From positions 1-20,920 of IMG/VR virus record IMGVR_UViG_3300026078_000880: DNA of 20,920 nt. One strand, written 5' to 3'. The first letter of the stretch is position 1, and every line of letters begins with the position of its first letter. The stretch is from a virus. The notes beneath the pieces are model-generated. The model did no database searches, had not been told where the DNA came from, and saw nothing but the letters and a program-made list of their open reading frames with translations. Both the position numbers and the translations under genes were made by a program. This document shows, piece after piece, positions 1,525 through 18,983 of this stretch.

Positions 1525-1711
1525 TCCGTTGCACTCTGCCGTAGCGACACCAGGCAGGCACCATGGCGACACAACGTGGAGCGATCGACACCGCGCGGGA
1601 ACGCGATGCCGACCATCCAACCTGCAGCAACACCTGCAAGCCAGACCGAAGGCTCCACACCCCGTCGACGGAGCCCGGCGAGGCTATCACGCCCGTCAAG
1701 AGAACCTAGGG
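1525..1711. other. Non-coding gap before com with an inverted repeat
   Basis: No gene is supported here on either strand. The only structure seen is GGCTCC at 1651-1656 matched by GGAGCC at 1670-1675, a six-base stem with a 13-base loop about 37 bases before the com start. It could be an operator or mRNA structure for com; by itself it is weak. I see no clear -35/-10 pair. Confidence 0.25.
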
Positions 1712-2615: not shown

Positions 2616-2694
2616 CCGAACGAAGGGATTGGCCACTGGTGCTTTGGCGCCGGTGGACTCCCGCGTGAAATGGTCCCAAACAGGAGAGTAGGGT

Positions 2695-3498: not shown

Positions 3499-3941
3499 GC
3501 AAGCAGAGTATCGCGGACCAATAATCGGTCTACCTCAGTAAAACCCAGCAGCTCACGTCGTGGATAGCGCACTCGCGGGCCGCCTGGCGTAACGTGATCC
3601 ATAAGGCCGTACTGGTGTACACGTGCGATGCGCTCGACTCGGCCCGTAAAGGTCACCTCCGCGCCCTCGGCGGTCGATCGCGCTTTCATATATTTGGCCG
3701 TCCGAAGTTTCGCAAACATCTTTCCTCGCTTGATACGGCCAGCCTTGCTGCGTAATTGTCGCGCTTTGCGAGGCGCGTAAGGCGTGCCATCCGGATTGCG
3801 CTGGTCGGCGATCCGTTGCTGCTGGCTCCGTCGCAAAGCGATCGCCACCGATTGCGCGACGCGTCGGCGGCCGATAGGGCTGATGGCCAACAACAGCCCA
3901 TCCACCCAGTCTTCAAGCAACGTCAGATCGGCGTCACTCAC
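3474..3941 (-). CDS. S: Tail completion / virion morphogenesis protein S (P2 gpS-like)
   Basis: Acts with R at the head-proximal end of the tail to finish it for head joining. The protein has LEDWVDGLLLAISPIGRRR near the N-terminus, a basic middle with RNPDGTPYAPRK, and RIARVHQYGLMDHV, all typical of the phage virion morphogenesis family. I chose GTG at 3941, giving 155 residues, because it makes a GTGA overlap with the gpR stop. An in-frame GTG at 3956 would add five residues and cannot be excluded. The last 25 bases overlap the convergent membrane protein gene, which marks the edge of the inserted block. Confidence 0.9.
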   Translation of the reverse strand: MSDADLTLLEDWVDGLLLAISPIGRRRVAQSVAIALRRSQQQRIADQRNPDGTPYAPRKARQLRSKAGRIKRGKMFAKLRTAKYMKARSTAEGAEVTFTGRVERIARVHQYGLMDHVTPGGPRVRYPRRELLGFTEVDRLLVRDTLLAQFQLLTK

Positions 3942-4417
3942 GCAGGCTGATCCCACTCTGCAATCAGGTCGTCACGCAGGAAGAGCCGCCAGTGCTTGGC
4001 CGTGAGTTGCGCCTCGGGCGCCGGCTCGTCCACGTGCACGATGTCCAGGCGTCCGGCATCACCTTCCGACACGATGACACGCTCGGTGAGCTTCAACGAA
4101 AGGCTCAGATCGCACGCATCGTGATAGATGATGTCCGCCTCGAACGTGATGCCGTCGGGCCGGAGATCCACGTTGTCGAGCAACTCCGGCTGATGGGCGC
4201 GCACCCACATCAGCAACGGCACCATGACGGTATCGGGATCGCCAGCGTAATCGGTTAGGATGACGTTGAGCGTGTAGCTGTACTCGAACGACAGGCCCGG
4301 CACGTACGTGCCGATCACCGATCCCTTGTCGACGAAGACCAGCAAGCTATCGGGGTTGCGCGCAAGATCCGGCAGCGCCGCCACCAGGGCCTGACGTAGG
4401 CTGGATGGCTTGTTCAT
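3938..4417 (-). CDS. R: Tail completion protein R (P2 gpR-like)
   Basis: A 159-residue tail completion protein, close in length to P2 gpR. The start MNKPSSLRQALVAALPDL, followed by NPDSLLVFVDKG, matches the family pattern strongly. The ATG at 4417 overlaps the LysB stop as ATGA, and the TGA at 3938 overlaps the gpS start, so R is tightly coupled on both sides. The frame is open a few codons upstream, but that would run into LysB and lacks family resemblance. Cytoplasmic virion assembly protein; late expressed with the lysis genes. Confidence 0.93.
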   Translation of the reverse strand: MNKPSSLRQALVAALPDLARNPDSLLVFVDKGSVIGTYVPGLSFEYSYTLNVILTDYAGDPDTVMVPLLMWVRAHQPELLDNVDLRPDGITFEADIIYHDACDLSLSLKLTERVIVSEGDAGRLDIVHVDEPAPEAQLTAKHWRLFLRDDLIAEWDQPA

Positions 4418-4899
4418 GGCGTGGTCTGGTTGGCATGTACCCACGACTGCAAGGCGTTCAGTTGCTCGATCGCCGCGTGGCAGGTGGCGTAGTTGTCGAC
4501 GACGGTGCCGGCGATGGCAGAGAGCGCAAGGCCGCTGGGCTGCGCATCAGAAGTTCCGGCGGAACCGGGCAGGTCATTCGAGGCCGCGGCGTCGTGCACG
4601 CGCACAAAGCCAACAGGCACGGTGCAAGCAGCATCGGCTTGAGCGGTGACATAGATGGGAATCTCCTTGGTGAGGACAGCGCTACGCTCGCGCACGATCT
4701 GCACGCGGTCGACGTAGCGCGTCACGATGCGCTCACTGGCCTTGGCCGCTTCCAGCTGACCGGCAAGCGCTCGCTGTGCAGCGATCGCCGTCTCGGCGCG
4801 CGCGTCCGCGTGAGCGATCCGCTGCATGGTGACGACGTGATAGAGCCACAGCGCACCGAGCAGGCCCGCGCCGAGCAGCACCTGGCGCAACAGGGTCAT
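4414..4899 (-). CDS. lysB: Inner-membrane spanin (LysB / Rz-like)
   Basis: The i-spanin subunit, which links the inner to the outer membrane through LysC and disrupts the outer membrane at the end of lysis. It has 161 residues with one N-terminal membrane anchor (LLRQVLLGAGLLGALWLY, about residues 3-20) and a long periplasmic part rich in alanine, arginine and glutamate, likely helical to about residue 80. Start ATG 4899 has a strong GGAGGTGG ribosome binding site and overlaps the endolysin stop as ATGA. The o-spanin gene lies inside this one in another frame, as in P2 lysB/lysC and lambda Rz/Rz1. Identification rests on topology and context more than on conserved residues. Confidence 0.85.
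   Translation of the reverse strand: MTLLRQVLLGAGLLGALWLYHVVTMQRIAHADARAETAIAAQRALAGQLEAAKASERIVTRYVDRVQIVRERSAVLTKEIPIYVTAQADAACTVPVGFVRVHDAAASNDLPGSAGTSDAQPSGLALSAIAGTVVDNYATCHAAIEQLNALQSWVHANQTTP
4458..4652 (-). CDS. lysC: Outer-membrane lipoprotein spanin (LysC / Rz1-like), embedded in lysB
   Basis: A 64-residue protein wholly inside lysB in a different reading frame. It has a basic start (MSPLKP), a short hydrophobic stretch (MLLAPCLLALCAC) carrying a lipobox-like LCAC or LLALC site, and then a proline-rich mature part (TTPRPR, CPVPPELL), which is the Rz1 signature. The ATG at 4652 is preceded by AAGGAG at a spacing of about 10 bases. Product: an outer-membrane lipoprotein whose periplasmic tail binds LysB. 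The lipobox is not perfect, so the acylated cysteine may be residue 17 or 19. Confidence 0.82.
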   Translation of the reverse strand: MSPLKPMLLAPCLLALCACTTPRPRMTCPVPPELLMRSPAALRSLPSPAPSSTTTPPATRRSSN

Positions 4900-5717
4900 G
4901 CCACCTCCGGTGCGGACTGACGTGCCGCAGCATGGCGTGCGTACGCCTTCGCAAGTTTCACGTCGTAGAGGTTCTCGGCATACGCCGGCCCGTTATAGAG
5001 CCGCGCGAACGTCGCCCATTTGCGACTGCGCAGCGCCTTGAGTAACTCCGCATCGCCCTGGATGAAGCGGACAAACGCCTGCATCTGCTCGGCCTCGCCG
5101 TTGGCAAAGACCGTGGCCATGTGCGAGGCACCGGCGTAGCCAAGCGCTTGGGCGTGGTAGCCCATGATCTGAAAGCGTCCCCAACTGCACGACTCGACCG
5201 CTGGCTCGCGCGCGATGGCGGTGGCCTGCGCGAGGCGCGCGTACTCGGCCGCACCACCCACATAACCACCACGGACCTGACTCAGGATCGCTGCCGGCGC
5301 CTGGACGGTCGTGGGATCGATGCCGTGCGCCTGCAGCTGCCGCCAGAACACGTGCCGTTCGAACAGAATCACCACGCGCCCATCCGGGAGGTACCCGGTG
5401 CGCGGGCTTTCCACCTCGATCACGGCGTGGATGGCGGCGCTTTCGCATTGGAGTTGGTCGGCGGCGAGCTCCACGTCGACCTGTGTCAGCGCATGCGGAT
5501 CTACGATGCCAAGCAATGCCTCCTGGGTGCGCAGACCGGCGATGCCGTCCTCGACCAGATGGTGACTGCGCTGAAACGCGCGTACCGCACTTTCCGTCGT
5601 CGCGCCGTACCAGCCGTCGACGCTGACCGCGTGGCCGGCACGGTTCAATCGCTGCTGCAGCACGGTGACGGCGGCGCCGTGGTCACCGGCGCGCAGGGGG
5701 GTGGAACTAGTCGTCAT
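4896..5717 (-). CDS. Endolysin: peptidoglycan-binding domain plus N-acetylmuramidase (DUF3380 type)
   Basis: Cleaves peptidoglycan for host lysis; takes the place of P2 gene K. It has 273 residues. Residues about 7-68 form a PG_binding_1 domain (LRAGDHGAAVTVLQQRL, VDGWYGATTESAVRAFQ). From about 85 to the end there is a DUF3380-type muramidase domain with AVIEVES at 98-104 (E101 or E103 as likely catalytic acid), VVILFERHVFW, SWGRFQIMG and LYNGPAYAENLY. No signal peptide is visible, so it needs a holin to reach the wall. The start overlaps the holin stop by 11 bases and the stop overlaps lysB by 4. P2 itself uses a different endolysin, so the modular replacement is a trait of this lineage. Confidence 0.92.
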   Translation of the reverse strand: MTTSSTPLRAGDHGAAVTVLQQRLNRAGHAVSVDGWYGATTESAVRAFQRSHHLVEDGIAGLRTQEALLGIVDPHALTQVDVELAADQLQCESAAIHAVIEVESPRTGYLPDGRVVILFERHVFWRQLQAHGIDPTTVQAPAAILSQVRGGYVGGAAEYARLAQATAIAREPAVESCSWGRFQIMGYHAQALGYAGASHMATVFANGEAEQMQAFVRFIQGDAELLKALRSRKWATFARLYNGPAYAENLYDVKLAKAYARHAAARQSAPEVA

Positions 5718-5991
5718 GGTTCGTCCGAAGGATGGCGGCGACGTTGCCCTGCGCCGTGAGACTCAGCACGCACAGCAGGAGCGACAGGCCGAGATCGCCG
5801 AGGTGGATGGCCGTGGTCGTGGTGTGACCGAGTGCAATACCCAACGCGGTGCTGCCGGTACTGACGATCAGCACCCACGCACAGAGGCTGACGACGAGGC
5901 GATAGCGCGCACCGGCGCGCCGATAAAACAGCAGGCGCGCACAAGTGATGGCGTTCGCAACAAACAGGAGCGCGGTGAGCAGCGCGTCCAT
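5707..5991 (-). CDS. Three-span phage holin (Phage_holin_3 type)
   Basis: A 94-residue membrane protein just before the endolysin. Hydrophobic stretches MDALLTALLFVANAITCARLL, RLVVSLCAWVLIVSTGSTALGIAL and LGDLGLSLLLCVLSLTAQ give about three spans, with a basic YRRAGARYR loop between the first two, and it ends in a hydrophilic RTNHDD tail. The pattern fits the putative 3TM holin family. ATG at 5991 overlaps the stop of the preceding gene as TGATG. It probably forms the inner-membrane lesions that let the endolysin out; which of the two membrane proteins here is the holin and which the antiholin or helper cannot be decided from sequence. Confidence 0.83.
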   Translation of the reverse strand: MDALLTALLFVANAITCARLLFYRRAGARYRLVVSLCAWVLIVSTGSTALGIALGHTTTTAIHLGDLGLSLLLCVLSLTAQGNVAAILRTNHDD

Positions 5992-6341
5992 CAGGAACCT
6001 CCACGGCGAAGCCAGCGCGTGAGGTCGAGAGTCTTGATCCGCTCCAGCCCTTGCACGGTGATCGCAATAGCGAAGGCTGCGGCGAGAAACGCCGACACGC
6101 CGGTTTCCTGCAGCCCCATGCGCGCGGCCACTTCGGGCGCGGCGAGGTAGCCGATGATCCAACTGATGATGAGATAAATGCCGCGCGAGGTCATCGACAC
6201 ATCGCGTGCATGCAGAGCGACGAGCGCTGCCCCGGCAAACGCACCGACGATGGCATTGCCATCAATGCCGGGCACCAAGGTGGCGATGCCCACGCCGGCC
6301 GCCATAAAGGCCAGCGTGGTGGTGGTCGTGGGTTCGGCCAT
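5991..6341 (-). CDS. Putative holin-like membrane protein
   Basis: A 116-residue membrane protein in the position of P2 gene Y (holin). The segments TTTLAFMAAGVGIATLVPGI, AIVGAFAGAALVALHA, GIYLIISWIIGYLAAPEVA and FLAAAFAIAITVQGL suggest three to four spans; the C-terminus is basic (LTRWLRRGGS). Proteins of this type accompany the 3TM holin in P2-like phages of Burkholderiales and Xanthomonadales, as I recall. The ATG at 6341 lies 12 bases after the gpX stop, and its stop overlaps the next gene by one base. The lysis role is inferred from topology and place. Confidence 0.75.
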   Translation of the reverse strand: MAEPTTTTTLAFMAAGVGIATLVPGIDGNAIVGAFAGAALVALHARDVSMTSRGIYLIISWIIGYLAAPEVAARMGLQETGVSAFLAAAFAIAITVQGLERIKTLDLTRWLRRGGS

Positions 6342-6353
6342 CGGATGCCCCCT

Positions 6354-6563
6354 TCAGGACCAGAGCTGCACCTGCGCCGTCACCGACGACGCAGCGTGGA
6401 CGGTGTCAGGCAGGCTGACGGGGTACCCCTGCGGCAACACGGGGCCGAGATCGGCGAGTCCAGGATTGGCGGCCAAGGCGGCTTCGGTGACGCTGTCGGT
6501 GCGCCCCAACGCACGCTGGCACAGCGCATCGAGCGTCTCGCCTTGCAGCGCGGGCACGATCAT
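6354..6563 (-). CDS. X: Tail protein X (P2 gpX-like)
   Basis: A 69-residue protein (P2 gpX is 67) with a LysM-like pattern: GETLDALCQRALG near the start, EAALAANPGLADLGPVLPQG in the middle and a short end. It is needed for P2 tail assembly and probably sits on the tail. Its ATG at 6563 shares the A with the gpL stop (TGATG). It follows L and precedes the lysis cassette exactly as in P2. Confidence 0.92.
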   Translation of the reverse strand: MIVPALQGETLDALCQRALGRTDSVTEAALAANPGLADLGPVLPQGYPVSLPDTVHAASSVTAQVQLWS

Positions 6564-7027
6564 CAGAGCAACTCCACCGTGGCGCGTGGACGACCCAGGA
6601 TGTCGCGGATGGCGTAGCGCGCTTGCCGACGATAGTCCTCGACGGAGAGATCCATTTGCTCGGCGCGACGTTGTCCAGCGTCGGTGCTGTCGAAGTCGCG
6701 GTAGCGTTCGAGCAGTTCCGCCTTAGCGGTGGCGTACACGGCGCGCTGGTAGAGCAACACCAGTCGCGAGACACCGCCGATCACCTTGCTCGGCACGGCC
6801 GCGAGCGTGGTGCGGCCCAGCGCATCCTGCTGCTGTTGCCAGGCATCCAGCTCGTCCTCCACCGCGGACATCGCCAATGCGATGCAATCGGTGAGGCGTG
6901 CATCGGTGACGGTACCGTCCAGGCGAAGCACAGCACGCACTTCGGCAAGATCGATCGCGGGATACCACTCCCCGGATCGGATCGTGGTTTGTCCTGCGGT
7001 AGGTGCAGTGGCGACGAAGCCGGACAT
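6563..7027 (-). CDS. L: Head completion/stabilisation protein L (P2 gpL-like)
   Basis: Completes the filled head so that the tail can attach. ATG at 7027, with GAGG about 8 bases before it, gives 154 residues, somewhat shorter than P2 gpL (169). The segments WYPAIDLAEVRAVLRLDGTV, LTDCIALAMSAVEDELDAW and RAVYATAKAELLERYRDFDST are typical of the family. An in-frame ATG 39 bases upstream exists, but the ribosome binding site favours 7027. It follows M after a gap of 97 bases that holds no gene. Confidence 0.92.
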   Translation of the reverse strand: MSGFVATAPTAGQTTIRSGEWYPAIDLAEVRAVLRLDGTVTDARLTDCIALAMSAVEDELDAWQQQQDALGRTTLAAVPSKVIGGVSRLVLLYQRAVYATAKAELLERYRDFDSTDAGQRRAEQMDLSVEDYRRQARYAIRDILGRPRATVELL

Positions 7028-7124
7028 CGTGACCTCTTCAAAATGCGGCGGTGGTCGGTGGGTCATCCGGATGGGAGAGAGGTCATCGGATGCCCACCGA
7101 GCCGCCGCGGCGCTCGGGGCGAGC

Positions 7125-7775
7125 TCAGGGCGCGGTGGCGAGCTGCTTGTGCAGCTTGCCGATCTCGGTCTTGATGCCGAGCCGCGGGTTCAGGTGCAGC
7201 GCACGCTGCAGGTGGTCGAGCGCTTGCGCAGGGGAGGTGTCGCGCAACGCCAGGCCAATCGCTTTATGGAGCTTGGCGCGCACTTCATCCGGCATATCAC
7301 GCCCGTCGGTGAGTTGGCCGACGCGCAAGAGTTGCTCGACCGTCACGCTGCCGGTCGGCTTGTCGCACTGATCGGCGATTTCTTCGACCACCAGCGTGGC
7401 GACGTCGCGCTGGTAGTGCTCAGGCAGCGCGAGATCATGCTTCAAGAGATGCGCGGCCATGTCCAGCGCCCGGTCGAGCGCGCCGGTGTCGATGTGCCAC
7501 ACCATCAGTGTCGCGAACACGTCGTCCTGCACCGGCTGGTCCGCGGCGAGCACACCATCGATCCACGCCGCGTATTCGGGCACGCGTTGCCGCTTGACCT
7601 CGATCTTTTGCTGGATCGACTGAATGCTCTTGAGCACGCGCTTGTCTTCGGCGAGCTTGGCAAGCATCAGGTCGTAGGCGCTACCGGTGAGCTGTCGCGT
7701 GCCGGTGTTGGCCGCCAGGCTGGAGGCCTGGGCGGCCAGCACACGCTCACGATGACGCATGGCGGGACTGGTCAT
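7125..7775 (-). CDS. M: Terminase small (endonuclease) subunit M (P2 gpM-like)
   Basis: With P it recognises and cuts the cos ends during packaging. It has 216 residues (P2 gpM is 247; the lysine-rich tail of P2 is missing here). The start MTSPAMRHRERVLAAQ, the segment VFATLMVWHIDTGALDRAL and the end DMPDEVRAKLHKAIGLALRD plus QALDHLQRALHLNP match the family closely. The TPR-like end is clear. The AGGA ribosome binding site overlaps the stop of the capsid gene 11 bases upstream. Confidence 0.94.
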   Translation of the reverse strand: MTSPAMRHRERVLAAQASSLAANTGTRQLTGSAYDLMLAKLAEDKRVLKSIQSIQQKIEVKRQRVPEYAAWIDGVLAADQPVQDDVFATLMVWHIDTGALDRALDMAAHLLKHDLALPEHYQRDVATLVVEEIADQCDKPTGSVTVEQLLRVGQLTDGRDMPDEVRAKLHKAIGLALRDTSPAQALDHLQRALHLNPRLGIKTEIGKLHKQLATAP

Positions 7776-7786
7776 CGCAGCGATCC

Positions 7787-8797
7787 TCAGTGCTTGAGCT
7801 CGATGTTTTCGAACAGGGCGACGGTGCCGTAGTGCTCCACCACATAGGCATCGTTGGAGGACTCGTAGTTCTCGATCTGGTCGCGTTCGGGCCGATCGCG
7901 CAGCAGGCGCCGGCGCGCACCTTCCTGCCAGTAAATGGAAAGGTTGCTGAGCGGGGTGACCAGCACCGCGTTGTCTGGGAAGCCCGGCACGCGAATGGCC
8001 GGCAGACCGCCCATCGCCTCGCGACTGATCAGGATGTCGCTGGCCAGCTCGTCGGTCGCGCGCTGGTCGCGGTTGAGCTTGGCGAACATCTTGTCGTGCA
8101 GCAGCTTGCGGCCGCAGATGGCGACAAGGTCGGTGGCATCGCGATACGGTTCGTCCAGCAGCATCACCGCGTCGTACACCAGCGCGTCGATGTTGGCGTA
8201 ATCGCAGCCGGCGACGGTGCCGACCTGGATCGAGCCCGGCGTCGCGCCTTCCTTCATCCAATGGCTCGGCGCATCGGTGCGGATGTGCTGCAACCAGCCG
8301 ATGTTCACGTCCTGCAGCAGCGGGTTGGCCGCGCGGTCCGTATCGGCAGCGACCTTCACGCCGTTGAAGCCGATCAGGATGCGGTCCAGTGCCTGGCGCT
8401 TGATGATGGCGTCGCGCAGGCGCGTCTGGAAATCGGGGAATTTCGCCCACGCATCGATCTGCTGGTACTTGATCGCGGTATCGAAGTTGGTCTTCTCGCA
8501 GCGATAGCCCTGGTCCTTGAGATCGCTGACGTCGCGCGGCGTACGATCCTTGGTGCGCGTATCGGTACGACCGGCGATCGTGCCGGTGACACCCAGCATC
8601 ACCTTGTCGCCTTCCTGCTCCTGCACGCCGATCAGGTTGATCTTGCCGAGGAAGTCGCTACTCGCTTGCAGCTGGTTTTCCAGCGTCTGCTGCACGCTCG
8701 GCGTCACGCTGAAGGTGGCGGCGGCACTGTCGACGCCGTTGAGATGGGCCACGCGTTCCGCGTAGGCGTTGAAGAGGCGGCGGGTTTCGTTACGCAT
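7787..8797 (-). CDS. N: Major capsid protein N (P2 gpN-like)
   Basis: Precursor of the main shell protein; in P2 it is assembled on O and trimmed at its N-terminus by O. It has 336 residues (P2 gpN is 357). The recognisable segments include MRNETRRLFNAYAERVAHLNG, DFLGKINLIGVQEQEGDKV, YEQ-like QQIDAWAKFPDFQTRLRDA and GFNGVKVAADTDRAANP. ATG at 8797 has GGAG six bases upstream. It lies between O and M as in P2. Confidence 0.95.
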   Translation of the reverse strand: MRNETRRLFNAYAERVAHLNGVDSAAATFSVTPSVQQTLENQLQASSDFLGKINLIGVQEQEGDKVMLGVTGTIAGRTDTRTKDRTPRDVSDLKDQGYRCEKTNFDTAIKYQQIDAWAKFPDFQTRLRDAIIKRQALDRILIGFNGVKVAADTDRAANPLLQDVNIGWLQHIRTDAPSHWMKEGATPGSIQVGTVAGCDYANIDALVYDAVMLLDEPYRDATDLVAICGRKLLHDKMFAKLNRDQRATDELASDILISREAMGGLPAIRVPGFPDNAVLVTPLSNLSIYWQEGARRRLLRDRPERDQIENYESSNDAYVVEHYGTVALFENIELKH

Positions 8798-8847
8798 GAC
8801 GGCTCCGGATCGGGCAGGCGGTGGGCGGCAGAAGGAGAAGGCGCGAA

Positions 8848-9705
8848 TCAGCAGTCGGTCTGCACCGTGCTGTTACCGCCGGTGGCCGGTGGGCGTGCGG
8901 TGTAAGCAGGAGTTGCTTCCAATTCGGCCCGAAGCGTGGCGAAGGCGGTGGCGGTCTGCTGGCCGGCTTGCTCGATGGCATCAAGGCGACGGGTCAGCGC
9001 GCCGAGTTGATCGCCGAACTGCTGCGTGACCGTGGTGGTGCGGGTGGCGAGTTGCTCCAGCGCGTCGGCCATGCCGCCCAACGCATCGCCGAACTCGGCG
9101 AACTGCGCATCCTGCACCTTCGTTTTGCCGGTGAGTTTGGCGAGGCGTTCCTTGATCGCCGCGAACAACGCGGCGGCGCCGCCATCCTCCGATTCGTCTT
9201 CCCACTCGATCTCGATCGGCTCGGCGGCGGTGAACAGGTTGTCGGGGGATTGCTTACGACCGGCGAGCGGGTTGGTGGAGGCCTGCGCGGCAAACGTGAG
9301 CATGTCGGTACCGAGGCTTGCGGGACTGTCGGTAACACCCAAGCCCACGAGATACGCGCGACCGGTGCTCGCGAATTTCGGATTGACTTCGATGCTGCTG
9401 TAGATCTTCTGTTTCGCCTGGGTCATGGTGACCAGGTCGGACGTGGGTTCGATCTGCGCGAAGAGTGCGAGCTTGCCCTTGAGATCACCGTCGGTGATTT
9501 CTTCGGCCTTCACCGCGGTGACATCGCCGTATGCCTTGAACGGACCGTCCGGCATTACGCCGCGGATGTGTTCCAGGAAGATGCGCGCGCCGTACGTCTG
9601 CGGGTTGTAAGTCGCAGCGATATCGCTGATCCAGCTGCGCTCCATCGTGCGCCCATCGGTGGTCGCGCCTTCGACGGCAACGCGGAAGAACTTGCTCTTG
9701 GCCAT
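8848..9705 (-). CDS. O: Capsid scaffolding protein and protease O (P2 gpO-like)
   Basis: N-terminal serine protease that processes capsid proteins, and C-terminal scaffold that shapes the procapsid. ATG at 9705 (MAKSKFFRVAVEGATTDGR) with GAGG eight bases upstream gives 285 residues, against 284 in P2. By alignment with the P2 catalytic triad (D19, H48, S107 as I recall), D17 (TTDGRT), H46 (FLEHIRG) and S104 (YSSIE) fill the same roles with the same spacing. The C-terminal third is helical and rich in alanine and glutamine, as expected for the scaffold part. The open frame extends upstream across the promoter region into the antisense of P, but that is not coding. First gene of the long late operon. 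Confidence 0.95.
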   Translation of the reverse strand: MAKSKFFRVAVEGATTDGRTMERSWISDIAATYNPQTYGARIFLEHIRGVMPDGPFKAYGDVTAVKAEEITDGDLKGKLALFAQIEPTSDLVTMTQAKQKIYSSIEVNPKFASTGRAYLVGLGVTDSPASLGTDMLTFAAQASTNPLAGRKQSPDNLFTAAEPIEIEWEDESEDGGAAALFAAIKERLAKLTGKTKVQDAQFAEFGDALGGMADALEQLATRTTTVTQQFGDQLGALTRRLDAIEQAGQQTATAFATLRAELEATPAYTARPPATGGNSTVQTDC

Positions 9706-9783
9706 GGGCGAAACCTCGTCGATGTGGCGCAGGGAAAGGACGGGGCCATCCTCGACACCGCGCGTCACACGAGCAACGCGATA

Positions 9784-9811
9784 GCGCGGTACCACCGCAC
9801 TGGTACCGCGC
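9784..9811. promoter_or_regulatory. Candidate late-gene activator site in the divergent O/P gap
   Basis: Perfect 10-base inverted repeat GCGCGGTACC-N8-GGTACCGCGC (spacer ACCGCACT), in the 148-base gap between the divergent O (start 9705) and P (start 9854) genes. The centre is about 92 bases from O and 56 from P. The core GTACC-N8-GGTAC is the same as upstream of gpJ at 1505-1524; the spacers are unrelated, which points to a protein-binding dyad. By analogy with P2 this is where the late activator acts. Standard -35 boxes were not seen. Confidence 0.6.
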
Positions 9812-9853
9812 CGCAAGCCATCGAGTCGAACGCGCGCGGGCGACGATGCGCGC

Positions 9854-11614
9854 ATGCTGATTCCCGCTCCCACCACCGATCTGCGCCGCGGTGCGCGTGC
9901 CTTGTACTGGCAAGGGTGGCGTGTGTCGGATATCGCGCAGGAGATGGGCATCGCGCGCACCACGGTGGAATCGTGGAAGACCCGTGATGCGTGGGACGCC
10001 GCGCCCGTGATCGAACGCGTGGAAACCTGCATCGAAGCGCGCCTGGTGCAGCTGGTGTGCAAGGAACCCAAGACCGGCAGCGACTACAAGGAAATCGATC
10101 TGCTCGGTCGCCAGATCGAACGCCTGGCACGCGTGCGGCGCTACGAAGCACCCGGTGGTAACGAGGCGGATCTCAATCCGAACATCGAGGCGCGCAACGC
10201 CGGCCCGAAGAAACAGCCCAAACGCAACGCCTTCAGCGAGGAACAGGTCGAACACCTGCGCAAGACCTTCCTTGCGTCGCTCTTCGAGTATCAGCACATC
10301 TGGCATAGCGCGGCGGACGAACGCACGCGCATGATCCTGAAGAGCCGCCAGATCGGCGCGACCTGGTACTTTGCGCGCGAGGCGCTCTATGACGCCATCA
10401 GCACCGGACGCAACCAGATCTTCCTGTCCGCGAGCAAGGCGCAGGCGCACATCTTCAAGCAGTACATCCGCCAGTTCGCGCAAGAGACCTGCGACATCGA
10501 TCTCAAGGGCGATCCCATCGTGCTGTGGAACGGGGCGCACCTGTACTTCTTGGGCCAGAACGCGCGCACTGCGCAGGGTTACCACGGCAACTTTTACTAC
10601 GACGAATTCTTTTGGACGTGCAATTTCGAGGAGATCAACAAGGTCGCCTCGGGCATGGCCATGCACAAGCAGTGGCGCAAGACCTACTTCTCCACGCCCA
10701 GCGCCAAGAGCCATCCCGCCTACGCGTACTGGACCGGTGACCGCTACAACCGGCGCCGGCCGAAAGACCAGCGGCTGGATATCGTCACCACGCATGAAGC
10801 CCTGATCAACGGCCTGCGCTGCCCGGACAAGGTGTGGCGACAGATCGTCACGATCGAGGATGCCGAGCGCGGCGGCTGCAGCCTGTTCGACCTGGACGAA
10901 CTGCGCATCGAGTACACGCCGGACGAATTCGCGAACCTCCTGATGTGCCAGTTCCTGGATGACGGGGACAGCCTCTTTACGCTGGCGATGATGCAAGGTT
11001 GCATGGTCGACAGTTGGGTCGACTGGACCGATTGGCAGCCGCTGGCCATGCGTCCATTCGGGTATGCGCCGGTATGGATCGGTTACGACCCATCACTCGG
11101 AGAGGGCGGGGATAGCGCGGGCCTGGTGGTGGTCGCGCCATCCAGCAAACCGGGCGGCAAATTCCGCGTGCTGGAACGGCATCGCCTGAAGGGTATGGAC
11201 TTCGAGGCGCAGGCGGAATTCATTCGGAAAATCACCAAACGCTACACCGTGACCTACATCGGCATCGACTGCACCGGCATCGGCGCGGCCGTGCATCAAC
11301 TGGTGATCCAGTTTTTCCCGCTCGCGCGCAAGATCCTCTACTCGCCCGATTCCAAGGCGCAGATGGTGATGAAGGCGCAGAACGTGATCGGCAAAGGCCG
11401 CCTGGCGTTCGACGCCGGCTGGACGGATCTCGCGCAGTCGTTCATGGCGATTCGCAAAACCCTTACCGACAGCGGACGGCACGTGAAGTACACGGCCGGG
11501 CGCACCGAAGACACCGGCCACGCGGATCTCGCGTGGGCCTGCATGCATGCCCTGATCAACGAACCCCTGGAAGGCGCGACCGCGCGCAACACCAGTTTGC
11601 TGGAGATTTTCTGA
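9854..11614 (+). CDS. P: Terminase large subunit, ATPase P (P2 gpP-like)
   Basis: Motor that pumps DNA into the head. It has 586 residues (P2 gpP is about 590). An N-terminal helix-turn-helix (ALYWQGWRVSDIAQEMGI, about 16-34, with TVESWK) is followed by an atypical Walker A loop KSRQIGAT at 163-170 and the Walker B strand FYYDE at 247-251. The C-terminal nuclease fold shows aspartates in WIGYDPSLGEGGDSAG (about 411-426), YIGIDCTGIG (about 469-478) and HADLAWA (about 555-561). ATG at 9854 has no good ribosome binding site, but the protein begins here as in P2. It is divergent from O, and its stop overlaps the portal start as TGATG-type coupling. Confidence 0.96.
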   Translation: MLIPAPTTDLRRGARALYWQGWRVSDIAQEMGIARTTVESWKTRDAWDAAPVIERVETCIEARLVQLVCKEPKTGSDYKEIDLLGRQIERLARVRRYEAPGGNEADLNPNIEARNAGPKKQPKRNAFSEEQVEHLRKTFLASLFEYQHIWHSAADERTRMILKSRQIGATWYFAREALYDAISTGRNQIFLSASKAQAHIFKQYIRQFAQETCDIDLKGDPIVLWNGAHLYFLGQNARTAQGYHGNFYYDEFFWTCNFEEINKVASGMAMHKQWRKTYFSTPSAKSHPAYAYWTGDRYNRRRPKDQRLDIVTTHEALINGLRCPDKVWRQIVTIEDAERGGCSLFDLDELRIEYTPDEFANLLMCQFLDDGDSLFTLAMMQGCMVDSWVDWTDWQPLAMRPFGYAPVWIGYDPSLGEGGDSAGLVVVAPSSKPGGKFRVLERHRLKGMDFEAQAEFIRKITKRYTVTYIGIDCTGIGAAVHQLVIQFFPLARKILYSPDSKAQMVMKAQNVIGKGRLAFDAGWTDLAQSFMAIRKTLTDSGRHVKYTAGRTEDTGHADLAWACMHALINEPLEGATARNTSLLEIF

Positions 11615-12603
11615 TGAACGACATGACCCCGTCACCGCGCATCGAAGCGTTCGCGTTTGGCGACCCCACGCCCGTGCTCGATGGGCGAGAGGTGCTGGAG
11701 TACATCGAGGCGTGGCGGAACGGGAAATGGTACGAGCCGCCGGTATCGTTGGATGGGCTGGCCAAATCGTTCCGGGCGACGCCGCATCACTCCTCCGCCA
11801 TCTATGTGAAGCGCAACATCCTGGTGTCGACGTTCAAGCCGCACCGCTTGCTGAGCCGCGAGGCCTTCGCGCGCTACGTGCTGGACTACCTGGTATTCGG
11901 GAACAGCTATCTGGAAGCGCCAAGGAATCGACTCGGCAAGGTGCAGCCGTTGCGGCCCGCGCTGGCGAAATACATGCGCCGCGGGTGCGATGACCTCAAT
12001 GCGTATTTCATGGTGCGCGGCTGGAAGATGGAGCACGAATTCGCACCGGGCTCGGTGTTCCACTTGCAGGAGCCAGACGTGCACCAGGAGATCTACGGCG
12101 TGCCGGAGTATCTGTCAGCGTTGCAGAGTGCCTGGCTCAATGAGTCGGGCACGTTGTTTCGGCGCAAGTATTACCTCAACGGCTCGCACGCCGGGTACAT
12201 CCTCTATCTCACCGATGCGTTGTCGGATGAAGCACAGGTGGATGCGATCAAGACGGCGCTCAAGAACAGCAAGGGGCCGGGGAATTTTCGGAACCTGTTC
12301 ATGTACGCGCCAGGCGGCAAGAAGGATGGCCTTCAGTTGATGCCAATCAGTGAGGTGTCCGCGCGGGATGATTTTTTCAACATCAAGAACGTGACGCGGG
12401 ACGATGTGCTGGCTGCGCACCGTGTGCCGCCGCAGCTGCTTGGCTTGGTGCCCACAGGCACCACTGGCTTTGGATCAGTGGTACCTGCCGCTCAGGTATT
12501 TGCTGTCAACGAGCTTGCTCCGTTGCAGGCTCGCCTGAGTGAGCTGAACAATTGGATGGAGGACGAGCTGATTGCCTTTGATCCTTACTTGGTCACTTGC
12601 TAG
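11614..12603 (+). CDS. Q: Portal protein Q (P2 gpQ-like, PBSX family), possibly altered at the C-terminus
   Basis: Forms the dodecameric portal through which DNA is packaged. It has 329 residues, against 344 in P2. Family segments are clear: VLDGREVLEYIEAWRNGKWYEPP, LAKSFRATPHHSSAIYVKRN, FVFGN-like YLVFGNSYLE, YGVPEYLSALQSAWLNESGTLFRRKYY and DDVLAAHRVPPQLLGLVP. The reading frame is intact. It ends in FDPYLVTC just after the point where the family normally has a few more residues, and immediately before the switch to the Rhs/immunity genes, so the last residues may come from the junction. P and Q form the second, plus-strand late operon. Confidence 0.94.
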   Translation: MNDMTPSPRIEAFAFGDPTPVLDGREVLEYIEAWRNGKWYEPPVSLDGLAKSFRATPHHSSAIYVKRNILVSTFKPHRLLSREAFARYVLDYLVFGNSYLEAPRNRLGKVQPLRPALAKYMRRGCDDLNAYFMVRGWKMEHEFAPGSVFHLQEPDVHQEIYGVPEYLSALQSAWLNESGTLFRRKYYLNGSHAGYILYLTDALSDEAQVDAIKTALKNSKGPGNFRNLFMYAPGGKKDGLQLMPISEVSARDDFFNIKNVTRDDVLAAHRVPPQLLGLVPTGTTGFGSVVPAAQVFAVNELAPLQARLSELNNWMEDELIAFDPYLVTC

Positions 12604-12662: not shown

Positions 12663-13010
12663 CTATTGTGTTCCGCGCTTTACCGGACAACCCCATCCAT
12701 CGTACTCAACGTCAAACAATGTCCCCAAGCACGCCATAAATCCCGATATCGAAAAGATGATGGGTTGCTGGATGGGTGTAGTAATCCTTACTAGGATCCG
12801 AAAGTCGCCTTCGAGCGACTCGATGAATGCCGATCCATAGCAATTGTCATTGACAAATTGCTGAAGCCGCTCTGCCTTTTGTGCACTTTGGGTATGGAAG
12901 GTAAAGTCAACATCTCGTCCAATTGAAAAATTGTCACCATGACTGCTTAGAGTGCTGAGAACATCGGCATCCGCTTTGGCTCCCGATATCAAACTTTCGA
13001 TCACAGACAT
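12663..13010 (-). CDS. RraB-like small protein, probable immunity protein
   Basis: A 115-residue protein that resembles the RNase E inhibitor RraB family: DADVLSTLSSHGDNFSIGR near the start, DFTFHTQSAQKAERLQQF in the middle and FDVEYDGWG near the end, a phrase also found in E. coli RraB. Full RraB proteins have a long acidic tail that is missing here. Position as last gene of a toxin-immunity operon, 66 bases after Imm26, suggests that it works as an immunity protein and not as a global RNA-decay regulator. ATG at 13010 is chosen for the GGAG six bases upstream; another ATG at 13025 is possible. It is less GC-rich than the phage genes. It converges on the portal gene with 59 bases between them and no visible terminator. 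Confidence 0.78.
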   Translation of the reverse strand: MSVIESLISGAKADADVLSTLSSHGDNFSIGRDVDFTFHTQSAQKAERLQQFVNDNCYGSAFIESLEGDFRILVRITTPIQQPIIFSISGFMACLGTLFDVEYDGWGCPVKRGTQ

Positions 13011-13076: not shown

Positions 13077-13628
13077 CTAATTAGGGCGTTGACTTCCTCG
13101 ACTCGTCTTCTTGTTGCCTTGGAGCTTTTCAAGGTCCAAAGCGGGTACTTCGTATCCCAAAACATGGGCCATGTAACGTTGGACCGCAGAGTGACCATAT
13201 AACGAATCTCGCCCCAGATCCTTACGCTCATCAACTTTTAACTCTTGCTCACTTAGTCGCTGAGCAGGGTCATTTGGATCGTAAAGGACCTCATAGCGTC
13301 GCCCTGTGAGAGGCTCTTCTCGCACGAAGCTAGGCATCGCCCAATCTTTAGAAGACCAATTGACACACTTGCCCACGATCGGCCACTCGCCATTCTTCAA
13401 TCCCATGTCACCAAAACGAATGACAACTTGAGCGTCTCGAGGCTTCAAATGGCACAGTGTGTCGAGGCTTGGGAGTTGATCGTAGACATCCGAAAAAAAA
13501 TAACCAAGCAATATTCCATGGCTTATGAAAGATGAACGTGCGACGACACCTGCAACAAAGTCGCGATTATCCAAGGGCACGAGGAACCACGTGCCCTCTT
13601 CATACTTAAATTTCGTTCTCTTCATCAA
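13077..13628 (-). CDS. Imm26-family immunity protein
   Basis: A 183-residue cytoplasmic protein with the Imm26 pattern: an N-terminal FKYEEGTWFLVPLDNRDFVAG-like stretch, GILLGYFFSDVYDQLPSL in the middle, then NGEWPIVGKC, a W-P-x-I-G style motif. The C-terminal 50 residues are charged and less conserved. The first ATG (13628) overlaps the toxin TGA as ATGA, so immunity is coupled to toxin translation. Family members sit next to polymorphic toxins and are thought to neutralise nuclease-type tips; here the adjacent toxin tail is a GIY-YIG nuclease. Assignment rests on recognised motifs, not on a search. Confidence 0.8.
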   Translation of the reverse strand: MMKRTKFKYEEGTWFLVPLDNRDFVAGVVARSSFISHGILLGYFFSDVYDQLPSLDTLCHLKPRDAQVVIRFGDMGLKNGEWPIVGKCVNWSSKDWAMPSFVREEPLTGRRYEVLYDPNDPAQRLSEQELKVDERKDLGRDSLYGHSAVQRYMAHVLGYEVPALDLEKLQGNKKTSRGSQRPN

Positions 13629-15826
13629 TGACCACTGCCGTTTTGGTAGTTCTGCGCCGCATTCATATACGTATTGTAGTTGGGATTGTTCGGGCTAATG
13701 CCATTTCTCTGATTTAGCGAGGGCTTATACGCATCCATATATGACTGCTCAAGGCCTCGTTGGGTGGCGTAATCATCTGTTGGCGCAACAGGGTCAAAAT
13801 TTAGTGAGGACTTCGCAGGGTTGCGACTGTGCTCTCCTTCACGCCGGATGAAATCGTTTGTACGACCGATGTACATAATGTCACCCGTGGCTGGATCACG
13901 CAACGCGTAGACTCCACCGATAGGCCCTACTTGTGCTCTTGAAGGCGGATTGGCCTCACATTGACCAAATTCCCCGAACTCTGAGGCCGGTCTTGGCGGG
14001 ACATAGGGCGTTGTATCCCGCGCACGCGCTGCTTCCTCTCTATCTCGATCCAGTCGTGCGATTTCCGCATTCGTATCCGGAGTATTTAATGCTTCCGCTT
14101 CTTTGGGATCGATTTCAGCCCTGTTGTTTTGCAAACCTAAAGGATCAATAGAACCTAGCGGATCGTTACCGCCATACGCGTATAAACTCCACTGTCCACC
14201 CCCATATCCAATCGGGTCAGGTTGCGCGTAGCCGCCGATGCTTGCGTCAAACGTTCGATGAATGTTGTCGCTTAGCCCTGTTTCCGTGTCGTAATACTGA
14301 CCAGGGAGGCGCAGGTTGTATGTGTAGCCATTACTTGTCGGCTGCTGTTCGCCCCATGGATTCCCTTGATAGGCCCAACTCCATACTGTATTGCCGCCGG
14401 CATCTGAGATAGCTCTAGGCGTTCCTAATTGGTCAGCAGTCACATAAGCAACTGACGTCGTCGTGCCTTGACTGTCGAGATTGGCTACCGGAATGTTATC
14501 GAGATAGACATATTCTCGATTGGTCGCACCGTACTCGCTTAGGATCTGACTGTCGGGACCATAGTTATAACGTTCCGTCGCACCATTAGCTGTCTTCGAC
14601 ACACGCTCATCGAAGGCGTTATATGTGTAAGTGGCGATTGTGCTCTGATTGAGCTGTACCAGAGTCAGCCGGTTGCGTGCGTTGTAACCAAACCCGTACA
14701 CGCTGCCGGCTTGGCTGATTGCTGTAGTATTGCCGTTGGCATCCGACGATCGGGCTGCATTGCCTGTGGCGATCAGCTGGTGGGTGTTGGGGTTATAGCT
14801 GTAGGTTCCCGTCGCCAAACCACTGCCCGTCTTGCTCAGACGATCGCCTGCCTGGTTATAGGTCACGCTTTCCAGCGTGCTGCCATCGGCTTCCGTGACG
14901 GTCGTCAACCGATATAGTGGGTTATAGCTATAAGTTTCTGTGGCCGGATTGGCCCCGGCACTGTTGCCGATGGCGGTGATATCGCCCATCGCATCCCGCG
15001 CGACGTGCAGCGTAAAGGTCGGACTGACGAGATCGGTCAGATGATAGTTGGCGTCATACGTCCGCGTCACCGCCTGGCCATTACCCAACGTGTAGCTGCT
15101 CACCGGCCCGAACGGCAGGTAGGTGACGTTGCTAACCAAGGTGGTGATGCCGCTGCTCGTAGTAGCGCTGACCCCACTGACGCGGCCATCTGCGTCGTAG
15201 CTGTAACTCACCTGATCACCGCTGGGGTGCGTGATGCTCAAGATCTTGCCGCCGGGGCTACGAGCATAGGTCGTGACATCCGTGTGACCACTGACCGTCT
15301 GACTCGCCTGGGTGACATAGCCTTGGGCGTTGTAGCAGAACATGGTGGTAACGCCGCTTTCGACGACCCGCGTCAGGTGGCCTATTGGATAGGAGGTCGT
15401 ACAGCCTGTAACGCTGTTGGCTTCGTCATAGGTGTAGGTGATGTTCTGGGTGTTGTCGGCGTAGCTCGCGCTTAGCCGGCGGTTCAGGGCATCATAGGTG
15501 TAGGTGACGGTGTTGCCTTTGGCATCTGTGCCGGTCAACACATTGCCGGCGGCGTCATACGTTTTGGCTGTTATTCCAGTATCGGGGCTGGTGACGCTTG
15601 TGGGGTCGGACAAACCGTCGTACTGGTACGTTGTGTTGAGGCCACTGGGATCAGTCACCTGAATGAGGCGATCCAGCGCGTCGTAAGTGTAGGTTGTCTT
15701 GGTATTGGCCGTTTGTGCGTCAGCCGGTACAACATTTGCTGCTACAGCGAGAGCAAGCATCAGCCCGGCGAGCGACTTTATATGTGTACCTAGGCGGCCA
15801 TGCTTTATGCGCTTCCTAACCATCAT
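13625..15826 (-). CDS. Secreted Rhs core protein with GIY-YIG nuclease toxin tail
   Basis: A 733-residue protein. ATG at 15826 (AGGAG just upstream; 15823 also possible) gives a signal peptide with KRIKHGR, a LAGLMLALAVAANVV core and cleavage near PADAQ. YD-type Rhs repeats follow at once (TYTYDALDRLIQVTDPSGL) and run to the core end, with PDPIGYGGGQWSLYAYGG and the closing DPLGL at about 561-565, where Rhs proteins cut themselves. The 168-residue tail has GVY (638-640), YIG (652-654), R662, H666 and E693, aligned with the I-TevI-type GIY-YIG active site, so it likely cuts nucleic acid. There is no PAAR or other T6SS domain; export would be by Sec. It lies 106 bases after the first Rhs gene and overlaps imm26. 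It appears to be the second half of a split Rhs shell. Confidence 0.88.
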   Translation of the reverse strand: MMVRKRIKHGRLGTHIKSLAGLMLALAVAANVVPADAQTANTKTTYTYDALDRLIQVTDPSGLNTTYQYDGLSDPTSVTSPDTGITAKTYDAAGNVLTGTDAKGNTVTYTYDALNRRLSASYADNTQNITYTYDEANSVTGCTTSYPIGHLTRVVESGVTTMFCYNAQGYVTQASQTVSGHTDVTTYARSPGGKILSITHPSGDQVSYSYDADGRVSGVSATTSSGITTLVSNVTYLPFGPVSSYTLGNGQAVTRTYDANYHLTDLVSPTFTLHVARDAMGDITAIGNSAGANPATETYSYNPLYRLTTVTEADGSTLESVTYNQAGDRLSKTGSGLATGTYSYNPNTHQLIATGNAARSSDANGNTTAISQAGSVYGFGYNARNRLTLVQLNQSTIATYTYNAFDERVSKTANGATERYNYGPDSQILSEYGATNREYVYLDNIPVANLDSQGTTTSVAYVTADQLGTPRAISDAGGNTVWSWAYQGNPWGEQQPTSNGYTYNLRLPGQYYDTETGLSDNIHRTFDASIGGYAQPDPIGYGGGQWSLYAYGGNDPLGSIDPLGLQNNRAEIDPKEAEALNTPDTNAEIARLDRDREEAARARDTTPYVPPRPASEFGEFGQCEANPPSRAQVGPIGGVYALRDPATGDIMYIGRTNDFIRREGEHSRNPAKSSLNFDPVAPTDDYATQRGLEQSYMDAYKPSLNQRNGISPNNPNYNTYMNAAQNYQNGSGH

Positions 15827-15932
15827 CCCCTCTCCTGTGTGATTGTCGGCTCGCATGCCCTCCCTCCCTGATAGCGCCCCCAATACTGAAGAACGTATCA
15901 ATGTCTGTGCATGATCCATGGCCGCGCCCCTG

Positions 15933-18900
15933 TCAGTTCGTGCCGTTGTAGTTGTCGAGGGTCTGTACCAGCCGATTCAGGGCGTCGTAGCCCGACTGGC
16001 GCTGGATACCCAAGCCATCAGCTCTCTGCACCAAATTGCCGTTGGCGTCATAGCTACCACTCGCGCTGGCATCGAAGACCATGTGATTGAGGCCATCGAT
16101 CACTTTGATGAGTTGGCCCAGCGAGTTGAAGCTTCGGGTCAGTGTTCTATATAGATTGCCGCCGGCGTCGTAGGTCTTCTCGGCAATCTTGTTGCCTGCG
16201 GCATCCAGGGTGTACTGCACGTAGTTACCCAGAGCATCGGTGATCTTCACCAAGCGATGCGCCGCGTCGTAACCGTAGGTGGTGGCGATACCGTCCGGAT
16301 CGGTAATCGTTTGTACAGCGCCATAGGGCGTGTAGGTGAAGCTGGTGGTTGCACCCCCCACACTGCGTGAGGCAAGCCATCCGCGTTTGGTATAGGTCAT
16401 ATCCGTGTTGAGGCCGTTGGCATCGGTTGTGCGCGTAATGCGGCCATCAGCATCGTAAGAGGCAATGGTCGTGACGTGGCCAACGGGATCGGTAACGATA
16501 TGAACGTCGCCGGTTTGATAGCAAGCTGCGCCCGCGGTGCCACAATTCATTGCGCTACTTGTCATGTAGTAGCTATACGTGATCGTTTGCGCGACGTCGG
16601 TTCGTGGCCCCGTGGCCGTCAACATCAACCCTACGAGCGGGCACTGCGTGGTGTCGACAGCTGTGCAATATGTATAGTTGGAGCGACGTACACCCACAGG
16701 CACGCTGCCGGTTGCGCTGCAGGTATATCCCGAGGCTGCGCTGCTGGCGGGATCGATATCGCAGCGGGCCAGCACCTGTCCAATGTTGTTATATAGCCAT
16801 TGCGTGGAACTGGCAGTGCTGCCGGAAGCATCTAGGACAGTTCTGGTCAGGGGAACGCGCAATGTAGCGTTCCAGGTGAAATTAGTGGTGCGCTGTTTGG
16901 ACGTTCCAGAAGCTTCGATCTGCTGATCAAGCAGACCGTTCGTGTCATAGGTCGTTTTGGACGCATTGCCATTGAAGTCCGTGGCCGAAGCGAGGTAGCC
17001 GTTGGTGTCGTAGGTGCTCGACGCATAAGGCTGATCACACTGCACGCCGCATGGTGCGCTGACGGTGGTGCGATGGAATGAGCCGAATTGTTGGTTAAAC
17101 GTCAGTGTCGACTGCGAGCCGGTCGGATAGGTCACGGTGGTCGTGCCGTCTGGGTTATAGGCCACTTGGGTTTCGGCGATGTTGGAGGCCAGCATCGACG
17201 TAGTGGCCCTCCCTTGGGCGTTGTAGCTGATGCTGGTGAAGCGCGTATTGGTTTCGTCGATATCACCCGTCAAAGCGGCGGGGAGATTGGCGCTGCTGGT
17301 TAGGGTGCTTTCGTTGTAAACGTACTGGCGAGATGTTTTGTCGGGATACGCAACTGATGTCAGATTGCCGCTTCCGTCGTAACCATAAGTCACCACGCCG
17401 CCATCCGGTTCCGTGATGTTGGCTATTTTCGAATTGCTGCTGTAGGTGAAGTTAAGCGTCCGTCCACGAGGATCGGTCACTGTCAGCAACAGACCCGCCG
17501 CTGGCGCCACACTGGTGGGCGTGGAAGCGGTACTGTACGTAAGTGTAGTAAGTAGGCCGTCTGTGTCCGCAATGGAGAGCAGATTTCCATTCTGATCGTA
17601 GCTTTCCTGATAGCGCGTTGCAGCGTCGAAATAGGTCCACCCTATGATCGCGCCAGAAGAATCCGTCTGCGGAGTAAGACGATCAGCCACGTCCGGGTCG
17701 GAGACCCATTGGCCCGAGGTCAAGGTGAAGTTGAGCTCGCGCCCATCCGGACGAAATGCTGTGGCGGTGATTAGTCCGTTACTGACGAGGTATTCGATGC
17801 TTCGATCGAAGGTGTGACGCCAATTGGTGCCGATGTGAGCGGGCGCGACAGACGTCTGGCTGTTGTAGTAGCGATGGAAGCTTAAAACCCCGAGCGAGAT
17901 GTCCGCATCATCTTTGTACTCGTTGCCGGTCGCTGAATTGATAGGGTCGCCGATGCAATTGCAGGATTTACCCAATTCCTTGCCATCAGGATTGCCTGGA
18001 ACGACTGCCAAATAGCCGATACCTTCGTCAGTGGTTCCAGGATCATAGGCACTGAATGACGATACGATCGCCCCAGTTTGCATATTGATGCGAGAAATAT
18101 TGCCGCTATTCGAATCGGCAACCCAAAACGTGTGCCCATCTGGATCGGGAAAGACGGAACCGAGTGATCCGTAATACGGACCGTCGTTAATTGCATATTC
18201 GTTAAGAACGTTGCCGGAGCTATCCAACAAAAAAACATCATCCCAGCTAGCCACCAGCAGGTTCCCATTGGGAAGCTGACGAATGTCGTACAAAACTTCG
18301 GTGCCGCCAAATGGGTCGGCGAGAGACTGTACGAGATCGGATAGTTGCGAGCCAGTGCAAACGTCGAATTGGTGAATGCTGTCGCCACCGGTGGTGTAGC
18401 GCAATGTGCATTGATCGGTAGACAGAGCGATATGGTCTATCGCGTCACCTGAATTTGGGTCATTGGGAACTGAATAAGTGATAATCAGATTTCCGCTGGG
18501 ATCAAACTTGAGAATCGATCCCGGTCCACCAGATGTCAGTGAGTCTTGGCCAACATAAGCATAGCCCTTGTTGTCAAATACTATCGAAGTCGGAAAGGTG
18601 TACCCGCTGCCGAAGCTTCCTCGCGTACCATCGCTACTGATTTGATAGACATCATTCGTCGAATTTTGAAAAGGGATGTAGATGTTATTTGACGCATCTG
18701 CCCCTAGCGATCCGAAATAGTTGTTGTTGACGCCAAAATTAAAGTTGTCGAGCAGTACACCATTGGGGCTGAAATGCTTGACGTGATGACCCCAAGTGGA
18801 GCCATAGCCGGCGAACATAGTGATAAAAACTTCTCCTGGACGTAGAGGGGCTCCGTCTGCGAATGCGGGCGGGGCACACAAGCCAGCTACTAAAAGAGCA

Positions 18901-18983
18901 AGCAGACACCTGATTGAGAAGCCCCACCTGGATAGGCGATACGAATCCGAAGTACGTCCTTGCTGCAGAAAAAGACTTTTCAT
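15933..18983 (-). CDS. Secreted Rhs protein with NHL-like beta-propeller, DUF6531 and YD repeats; no toxin tail
   Basis: A 1016-residue protein. ATG at 18983 has GGAG six bases upstream; an ATG at 18995 would add four residues. The signal peptide runs to about AFA-DG (residue 42-43). Residues about 50-330 show repeated DxxGN/S-type strands (FSPNGVLLDNF, LKFDPSGNLIITYS, FLLDSSGNVLNEY, FWVADSNSGNISRINMQTG), consistent with an NHL/SMP-30-like propeller. Residues about 340-400 (CNCIGDPINSATGNEYKDD, LSFHRYYNSQ) are the DUF6531 start of an Rhs shell, followed by YD repeats to the end. It stops at GYDALNRLVQTLDNYNGTN, with no core end motif and no toxin. The missing part begins in the next gene, which has its own signal peptide. 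Together they probably make a shell around the toxin. Confidence 0.87.
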   Translation of the reverse strand: MKSLFLQQGRTSDSYRLSRWGFSIRCLLALLVAGLCAPPAFADGAPLRPGEVFITMFAGYGSTWGHHVKHFSPNGVLLDNFNFGVNNNYFGSLGADASNNIYIPFQNSTNDVYQISSDGTRGSFGSGYTFPTSIVFDNKGYAYVGQDSLTSGGPGSILKFDPSGNLIITYSVPNDPNSGDAIDHIALSTDQCTLRYTTGGDSIHQFDVCTGSQLSDLVQSLADPFGGTEVLYDIRQLPNGNLLVASWDDVFLLDSSGNVLNEYAINDGPYYGSLGSVFPDPDGHTFWVADSNSGNISRINMQTGAIVSSFSAYDPGTTDEGIGYLAVVPGNPDGKELGKSCNCIGDPINSATGNEYKDDADISLGVLSFHRYYNSQTSVAPAHIGTNWRHTFDRSIEYLVSNGLITATAFRPDGRELNFTLTSGQWVSDPDVADRLTPQTDSSGAIIGWTYFDAATRYQESYDQNGNLLSIADTDGLLTTLTYSTASTPTSVAPAAGLLLTVTDPRGRTLNFTYSSNSKIANITEPDGGVVTYGYDGSGNLTSVAYPDKTSRQYVYNESTLTSSANLPAALTGDIDETNTRFTSISYNAQGRATTSMLASNIAETQVAYNPDGTTTVTYPTGSQSTLTFNQQFGSFHRTTVSAPCGVQCDQPYASSTYDTNGYLASATDFNGNASKTTYDTNGLLDQQIEASGTSKQRTTNFTWNATLRVPLTRTVLDASGSTASSTQWLYNNIGQVLARCDIDPASSAASGYTCSATGSVPVGVRRSNYTYCTAVDTTQCPLVGLMLTATGPRTDVAQTITYSYYMTSSAMNCGTAGAACYQTGDVHIVTDPVGHVTTIASYDADGRITRTTDANGLNTDMTYTKRGWLASRSVGGATTSFTYTPYGAVQTITDPDGIATTYGYDAAHRLVKITDALGNYVQYTLDAAGNKIAEKTYDAGGNLYRTLTRSFNSLGQLIKVIDGLNHMVFDASASGSYDANGNLVQRADGLGIQRQSGYDALNRLVQTLDNYNGTN

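What the first reader, a model, noticed from the sequence alone, without database searches (positions are those of the whole stretch)
13625..18983. Rhs shell split into two separately exported proteins
The first Rhs protein ends in mid-repeat (LDNYNGTN, stop) without core end motif or toxin. The second begins, right after its own Sec signal peptide, with the next repeat (TANTKTTYTYDALDRL). Joined, they read as one continuous Rhs chain. A simple nonsense or frameshift mutation would not create a signal peptide, so this looks like an evolved two-part toxin in which the halves must meet outside the cytoplasm, or a recombined toxin-end cassette with its own export signal.
Basis: partly seen in the sequence, partly recalled or inferred. 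Interest (0 to 1): 0.7.

Follow-up and report, generated by a model that had tools for sequence, protein, structure and literature searches.

The report
Bacterial toxin shell in two exported halves
A soil bacterium related to Dyella encodes a toxin-carrying protein shell as two separately exported halves instead of one chain; relatives keep the cut at exactly the same place while swapping the front half, so one toxin half appears able to work with many different front halves.

Summary
In the window, P1 (SP, six-bladed propeller, N-half of an Rhs shell) stops at ...NYNGTN*. Thirteen bases later, in another frame, P2 starts (SP, C-half, Rhs core, GIY-YIG/URI-type toxin), followed by Imm26. The same split occurs in 14 Dyella-type loci. 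All 19 long front halves end at the same residue, and the gap is 13 nt in 13 of 14 pairs. Single-chain homologues (29 used) read straight across the joint. The rear halves fit one clade (p-AU 0.51). The front halves do not (p-AU 3e-5): they are scattered among single-chain relatives, and some loci carry two or more front halves before one rear half. dN/dS is mostly 0.04-0.2 in both. Two other splits at different joints (9 loci, 1 locus) also place a signal peptide on the rear half. Models put P1 and P2 on complementary halves of solved single-chain Rhs cages, with P2 starting near the TcC start. Likely mechanism: both halves cross by Sec and meet in the periplasm to close a TcB/TcC-like cocoon, making front halves interchangeable. 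Assembly and toxicity are inferred. It is a new variant of the split-shell idea, not a Tc toxin.

The parts
15933..18983 (-). Front half A (P1), 1016 aa, ends mid-repeat; alternative upstream ATG at 18995
18855..18983 (-). Signal peptide of A (..CLLALLVAGLCAPPAFA^DG)
   Evidence: and inspection
17988..18842 (-). Six-bladed beta-propeller (YWTD/NHL-like), N-terminal domain of A; shared with single-chain L005, L014, L131, L134
17727..17951 (-). DUF6531, start of the Rhs shell
15936..17987 (-). Rhs N-half of the shell
15920..15935 (-). Stop of A (TGA) plus the 13-nt gap to the B start, same length in 13 of 14 loci
13625..15919 (-). Rear half B (P2), 764 aa
15716..15919 (-). Leader and signal peptide of B; conserved inner ATG with a ribosome-binding-site-like GGAG near 15826
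14132..15715 (-). Rhs C-half with core/autoprotease-type motif (14132-14362)
13628..14131 (-). Variable toxin end, GIY-YIG/URI nuclease-like (weak Pfam match 13811-13918)
13077..13625 (-). Imm26 immunity protein, start overlaps the B stop (TGATG)

Best explanation
This is an evolved two-chain Rhs polymorphic toxin. A (propeller plus N-half of the Rhs shell) and B (C-half, autocleaving core and GIY-YIG/URI-type nuclease) are translated from adjacent genes. Each is exported by its own Sec signal, and they assemble after export into one cocoon that holds the toxin, as TcB and TcC do. B is a mobile cassette. By homologous recombination in the conserved 3' part of A it comes to sit behind front halves of many lineages, so N-terminal domains and toxin ends are exchanged independently. 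Shown here: the split, its conservation, selection, reassortment, and complementary shell folds in separate models. Inferred: export, pairing, autocleavage, nuclease activity and use against rival bacteria. The route beyond the periplasm is unknown.
For: Recurrent exact joint, 13-nt gap, single-chain relatives reading through it. Rear halves fit one clade; front halves do not. Identity falls on both sides of a shared core around the joint. N-terminal domain types are shared between split and fused forms and toxin ends are diverse. dN/dS: A mostly 0.07-0.2, B 0.04-0.18. Separate models map to complementary halves of one cage, e.g. 8qjd_B 360-947 and 851-1420. P2 aligns to TcC nearly end to end (4igl_D 36-688, Z 20.9, rmsd 2.9). 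Imm26 is a listed partner of Tox-URI1. Splits elsewhere also place a signal peptide on the rear half.
Against: No complex was predicted and no experiment exists. Four rear halves (L073, L074, L076, L079) have no adjacent front half; the search showed none in the G076 genome, yet B there is intact, and L073 against L074 gives dN/dS 0.08. The mapped ranges of P1 and P2 overlap by about 100 residues, which may be repeat slippage. Part of the A divergence measured by dN/dS predates the split. The toxin fold was not resolved (pLDDT under 50) and its Pfam match is below the curated cut-off.
Confidence: 0.72

Rival explanations
1. Displacement cassette: B is a stand-alone exported toxin that inserted after the joint, and the front halves are truncated leftovers or scaffolds with no role in the B toxin.
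For: Orphan B genes with signal peptides and no A nearby; front halves from many lineages; Rhs loci are known to carry displaced ends.
Against: Front halves stay under purifying selection, e.g. L068 vs L126, both split, dN/dS 0.086. They keep an exact end and a 13-nt coupling, and B covers only half of a shell.
Confidence: 0.15
2. A and B are each functional but do not form one shell: A has another job (adhesion or receptor) and B homodimerises or stays open.
For: A has a propeller or other N-terminal domains and no toxin; several A genes can precede one B; no complex was tested.
Against: Exact continuity with single-chain homologues and complementary mapping to one cage.
Confidence: 0.1
3. 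Recent nonsense or frameshift, sequencing error, or programmed read-through of a single-chain gene.
For: The family is mostly single-chain; some true broken copies exist (L101, L136).
Against: Same split in 14 loci, a signal peptide at the joint, different frames, no gap in the repeat.
Confidence: 0.02

Closest known systems
TcB and TcC of ABC (Tc) toxins (shell in two genes; e.g. YenB/YenC, TcdB2/TccC3)
   Same: Two chains make one Rhs cocoon; the N-terminal chain carries a beta-propeller; the C-terminal chain holds core and variable toxin; orphan TcC pairs in trans (PMC11067744); fused forms exist (PMC7861908). P2 starts near the TcC start.
   Different: Sec signal on each chain here; no SpvB/TcB midN/midC Pfam match; no TcA-type domain found in 18 of 19 related genomes; linked immunity gene; front halves reassort and occur in tandem.
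Single-chain Sec-exported Rhs polymorphic toxins of the same family of bacteria (Dyella and relatives)
   Same: Same domains and N-terminal types; up to 84% identity in the front half.
   Different: One chain of about 1500-1770 aa, no signal peptide in the middle.
T6SS Rhs effectors (RhsA, Tse5, RhsP, Tre23)
   Same: Same cage fold and core motif.
   Different: Single chain there; no PAAR/VgrG-type domain found here and a Sec signal instead.
Tox-URI1/Imm26 toxin-immunity pair
   Same: GIY-YIG-like end followed by Imm26, as listed in PMC3482391.
   Different: Here it rides on a half-shell.

Membership tests
Rhs polymorphic toxin | RHS/YD repeats | tested here: met
   PF05593 in both halves, E 6e-37 and 2e-33
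Rhs polymorphic toxin | Rhs core motif before a variable toxin end | tested here: met
   TIGR03696 in P2; unrelated ends among relatives
Rhs polymorphic toxin | Immunity gene next to the toxin | tested here: met
   Imm26, E 3e-10
Rhs polymorphic toxin | Autocleavage of the toxin end | not testable with these tools
   Conserved aspartates only
Tc (ABC) toxin BC component | Shell made of two chains split near the TcB/TcC boundary | tested here: inconclusive
   P2 aligns to TcC from residue 26-38 on; no complex was predicted
Tc (ABC) toxin BC component | SpvB and TcB mid domains in the N-terminal chain | tested here: not met
   No Pfam match at E 0.1
Tc (ABC) toxin BC component | TcA partner in the genome | tested here: inconclusive
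   PF18276 in only 1 of 19 related genomes; the window's own host genome is not held
T6SS Rhs effector | PAAR or VgrG domain at the N-terminus | tested here: not met
   No such Pfam match in P1 or P2 at E 0.1
Tox-URI1 (GIY-YIG) toxin | GIY-YIG/URI nuclease domain | tested here: inconclusive
   PF01541 E 0.019, 15.7 bits, below the cut-off of 22.6; Imm26 neighbour fits

The most novel reading that the evidence does not exclude
Combinatorial assembly outside the cytoplasm: several exported front halves with different N-terminal domains, from one operon or elsewhere in the genome, share and exchange one exported toxin half, so one toxin can be fitted with different heads without any DNA change.
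Probability: 0.35. Interest if true: 0.78.

Novelty: new variant of a known kind. Interest (0 to 1): 0.64.

Why it matters
The solved Rhs cages outside the Tc toxins are single chains built around their cargo. Here the cage is encoded as two exported halves, and the same protein family is split at three different places. That gives natural material to test how an Rhs shell closes, whether it can close after export, and how the TcB/TcC division arose. The loci also show that both ends are exchanged, head domains as well as toxin ends.

Tried and rejected
Sequencing error, nonsense or frameshift: rejected by recurrence, and true broken copies look different (L101, L136: no signal peptide at the break). 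Read-through: the frames differ. Programmed frameshifting near the A end: the B frame is open across the last A codons, but no clear slippery site was seen by eye and the product would carry a signal peptide in its middle. Tc membership: SpvB/TcB domains not found, TcA domain rare. My exact pattern for the joint across genomes was too strict and found only two sites. Toxin ends of ten relatives: almost no Pfam match. Paper searches for a split Sec-exported Rhs found none; that library lacks most subscription journals.

Full report
Observation. On the minus strand the window encodes P1 (15933-18983) and P2 (13625-15919). P1 has a signal peptide, DUF6531 and RHS repeats, no core motif, and ends NYNGTN*. 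P2 has a long leader with a signal peptide, starts with the next repeat, carries the Rhs core motif and ends in a weakly GIY-YIG-like toxin. Imm26 follows with an overlapping start, then an RraB-like gene. The window is an IMG/VR record, and its first 12.6 kb hold phage genes of P2 type. Its closest named relatives are Dyella.

Recurrence. Searches of viral contigs and of 233 genomes of the family gave many homologues, most of them single chains of about 1500-1770 aa. Reading ORFs around them gave 14 loci with A directly followed by B, in the window, two viral contigs and six genomes, plus one pair cut by contig ends. All 19 A halves over 700 aa with an intact end finish NYNGTN* or NYNGAN*. 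B starts 13 nt after the A stop in 13 of 14; the divergent L077 has candidate starts at 2 and 17 nt. Single chains read NYNGTD-TATQNTKT across the joint. Mature B begins at the repeat boundary, right after an AxA-type site, mostly xAQTAN. Two A copies precede B in L004, L008, L069 and L072; L125 holds an A remnant and two A genes running to a contig end.

Evolution. In a tree of the C-half region all split and orphan B fall near one clade, and holding them together costs nothing (p-AU 0.51). In a tree of the N-half region split A are scattered among single chains: 12 changes, at least 7 forced by well-supported branches, and one clade is rejected (p-AU 3.1e-5). The window's A is closest to the single chains L014 and L005, 84% identical to L014. 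L066's first part resembles single-chain L105 and its last 280 residues resemble split L070. In one genome with five pairs, DNA identity is about 0.55 up to 1100 bases before the joint, 0.84-0.95 from 900 bases before up to the joint, and falls to 0.54 or less at the toxin end. N-terminal domain types of split A are mostly shared with single chains, and toxin ends are mostly different. This is what repeated homologous recombination through a conserved middle would give. dN/dS is low in both halves, including upstream A copies. A caveat is that some A divergence predates the split.

Other splits. A second type, joint near P1 residues 718-785, occurs in nine loci (L084-L086, L088-L091, L093, L137) with rear halves that start with a signal peptide. 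A-A-A-B is seen in L090 and A-A-B in L093. A third type, joint at about 878, is in L135 from another part of the order. They use different joints, so they look independent, although no tree was built for them.

Structure. AlphaFold2 models were made of each mature chain with alignments of 50 and 48 sequences. P2's repeat part is confident (pLDDT about 90) and its toxin end is not. P1 is confident overall (84). P2 aligns with the C-half of single-chain T6SS cages (8qja_D 532-1076, Z 25.7; 8qjd_B 851-1420, Z 24.9) and nearly end to end with TcC (4igl_D 36-688; 6l7i_G 38-661; 5kis_B 26-687; Z about 21). P1 residues 5-289 (mature) are a six-bladed propeller (1npe, Z 26.8), and the rest aligns with the N-half of the cages (8qjd_B 360-947, Z 28.8). 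So P2 does not by itself look like a full shell, and the cut lies close to the natural TcB/TcC cut. Repeats can slip in such alignments by a strand or two.

Mechanism. Shown: two genes, conserved joint, selection, reassortment, complementary folds. Inferred from the sequences: Sec export of both, pairing in the periplasm, autocleavage at the core, nuclease action and Imm26 protection (Imm26 is a listed partner of Tox-URI1 in PMC3482391). Unknown: how the complex leaves the cell. Lysis with the neighbouring prophage is a possibility, not tested. Orphan B genes could act with A genes elsewhere, as orphan TcC does (PMC11067744), but the search found no split A in G076.

Known or new. Split Rhs shells are known from TcB/TcC, and fused forms too (PMC7861908). 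This is not a Tc toxin by domain content, and a TcA-type domain was found in only 1 of 19 related genomes. What appears undescribed in the papers searched is separate Sec export of the two halves, repeated splitting, and exchange of front halves with tandem copies.

Noticed in passing
window 1-12603; L069 243-3016; L007; L014; L004: The Rhs genes sit next to P2-type phage genes: by the portal gene in the window and L069, and close to a tail gene or primase in L007, L014 and L004. They look like prophage cargo at more than one site.
   Followed up: partly
L084-L086, L088-L091, L093, L137: A second split of the same family at another joint, with short front halves in tandem (three in L090). There the third front half shares its signal peptide and leader with the rear half.
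   Followed up: partly
L135 4692-9230: A third split, with front half 649 aa and rear half 862 aa that starts with a signal peptide, in a genome outside the main set.
   Followed up: partly
L073, L074, L076, L079: Rear halves with signal peptide and no adjacent front half; L073/L074 keep synteny between two genomes.
   Followed up: partly
window 15716-15919 and homologues: The leader of B has fewer synonymous changes than the B repeats and two conserved candidate starts; the longer start would give an unusually long leader.
   Followed up: no
window 12663-13010: RraB-like gene next to the immunity gene.
   Followed up: no
G082 C12:195495-196367: One TcA-type domain (PF18276) in a related genome that also has split Rhs genes.
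   Followed up: no
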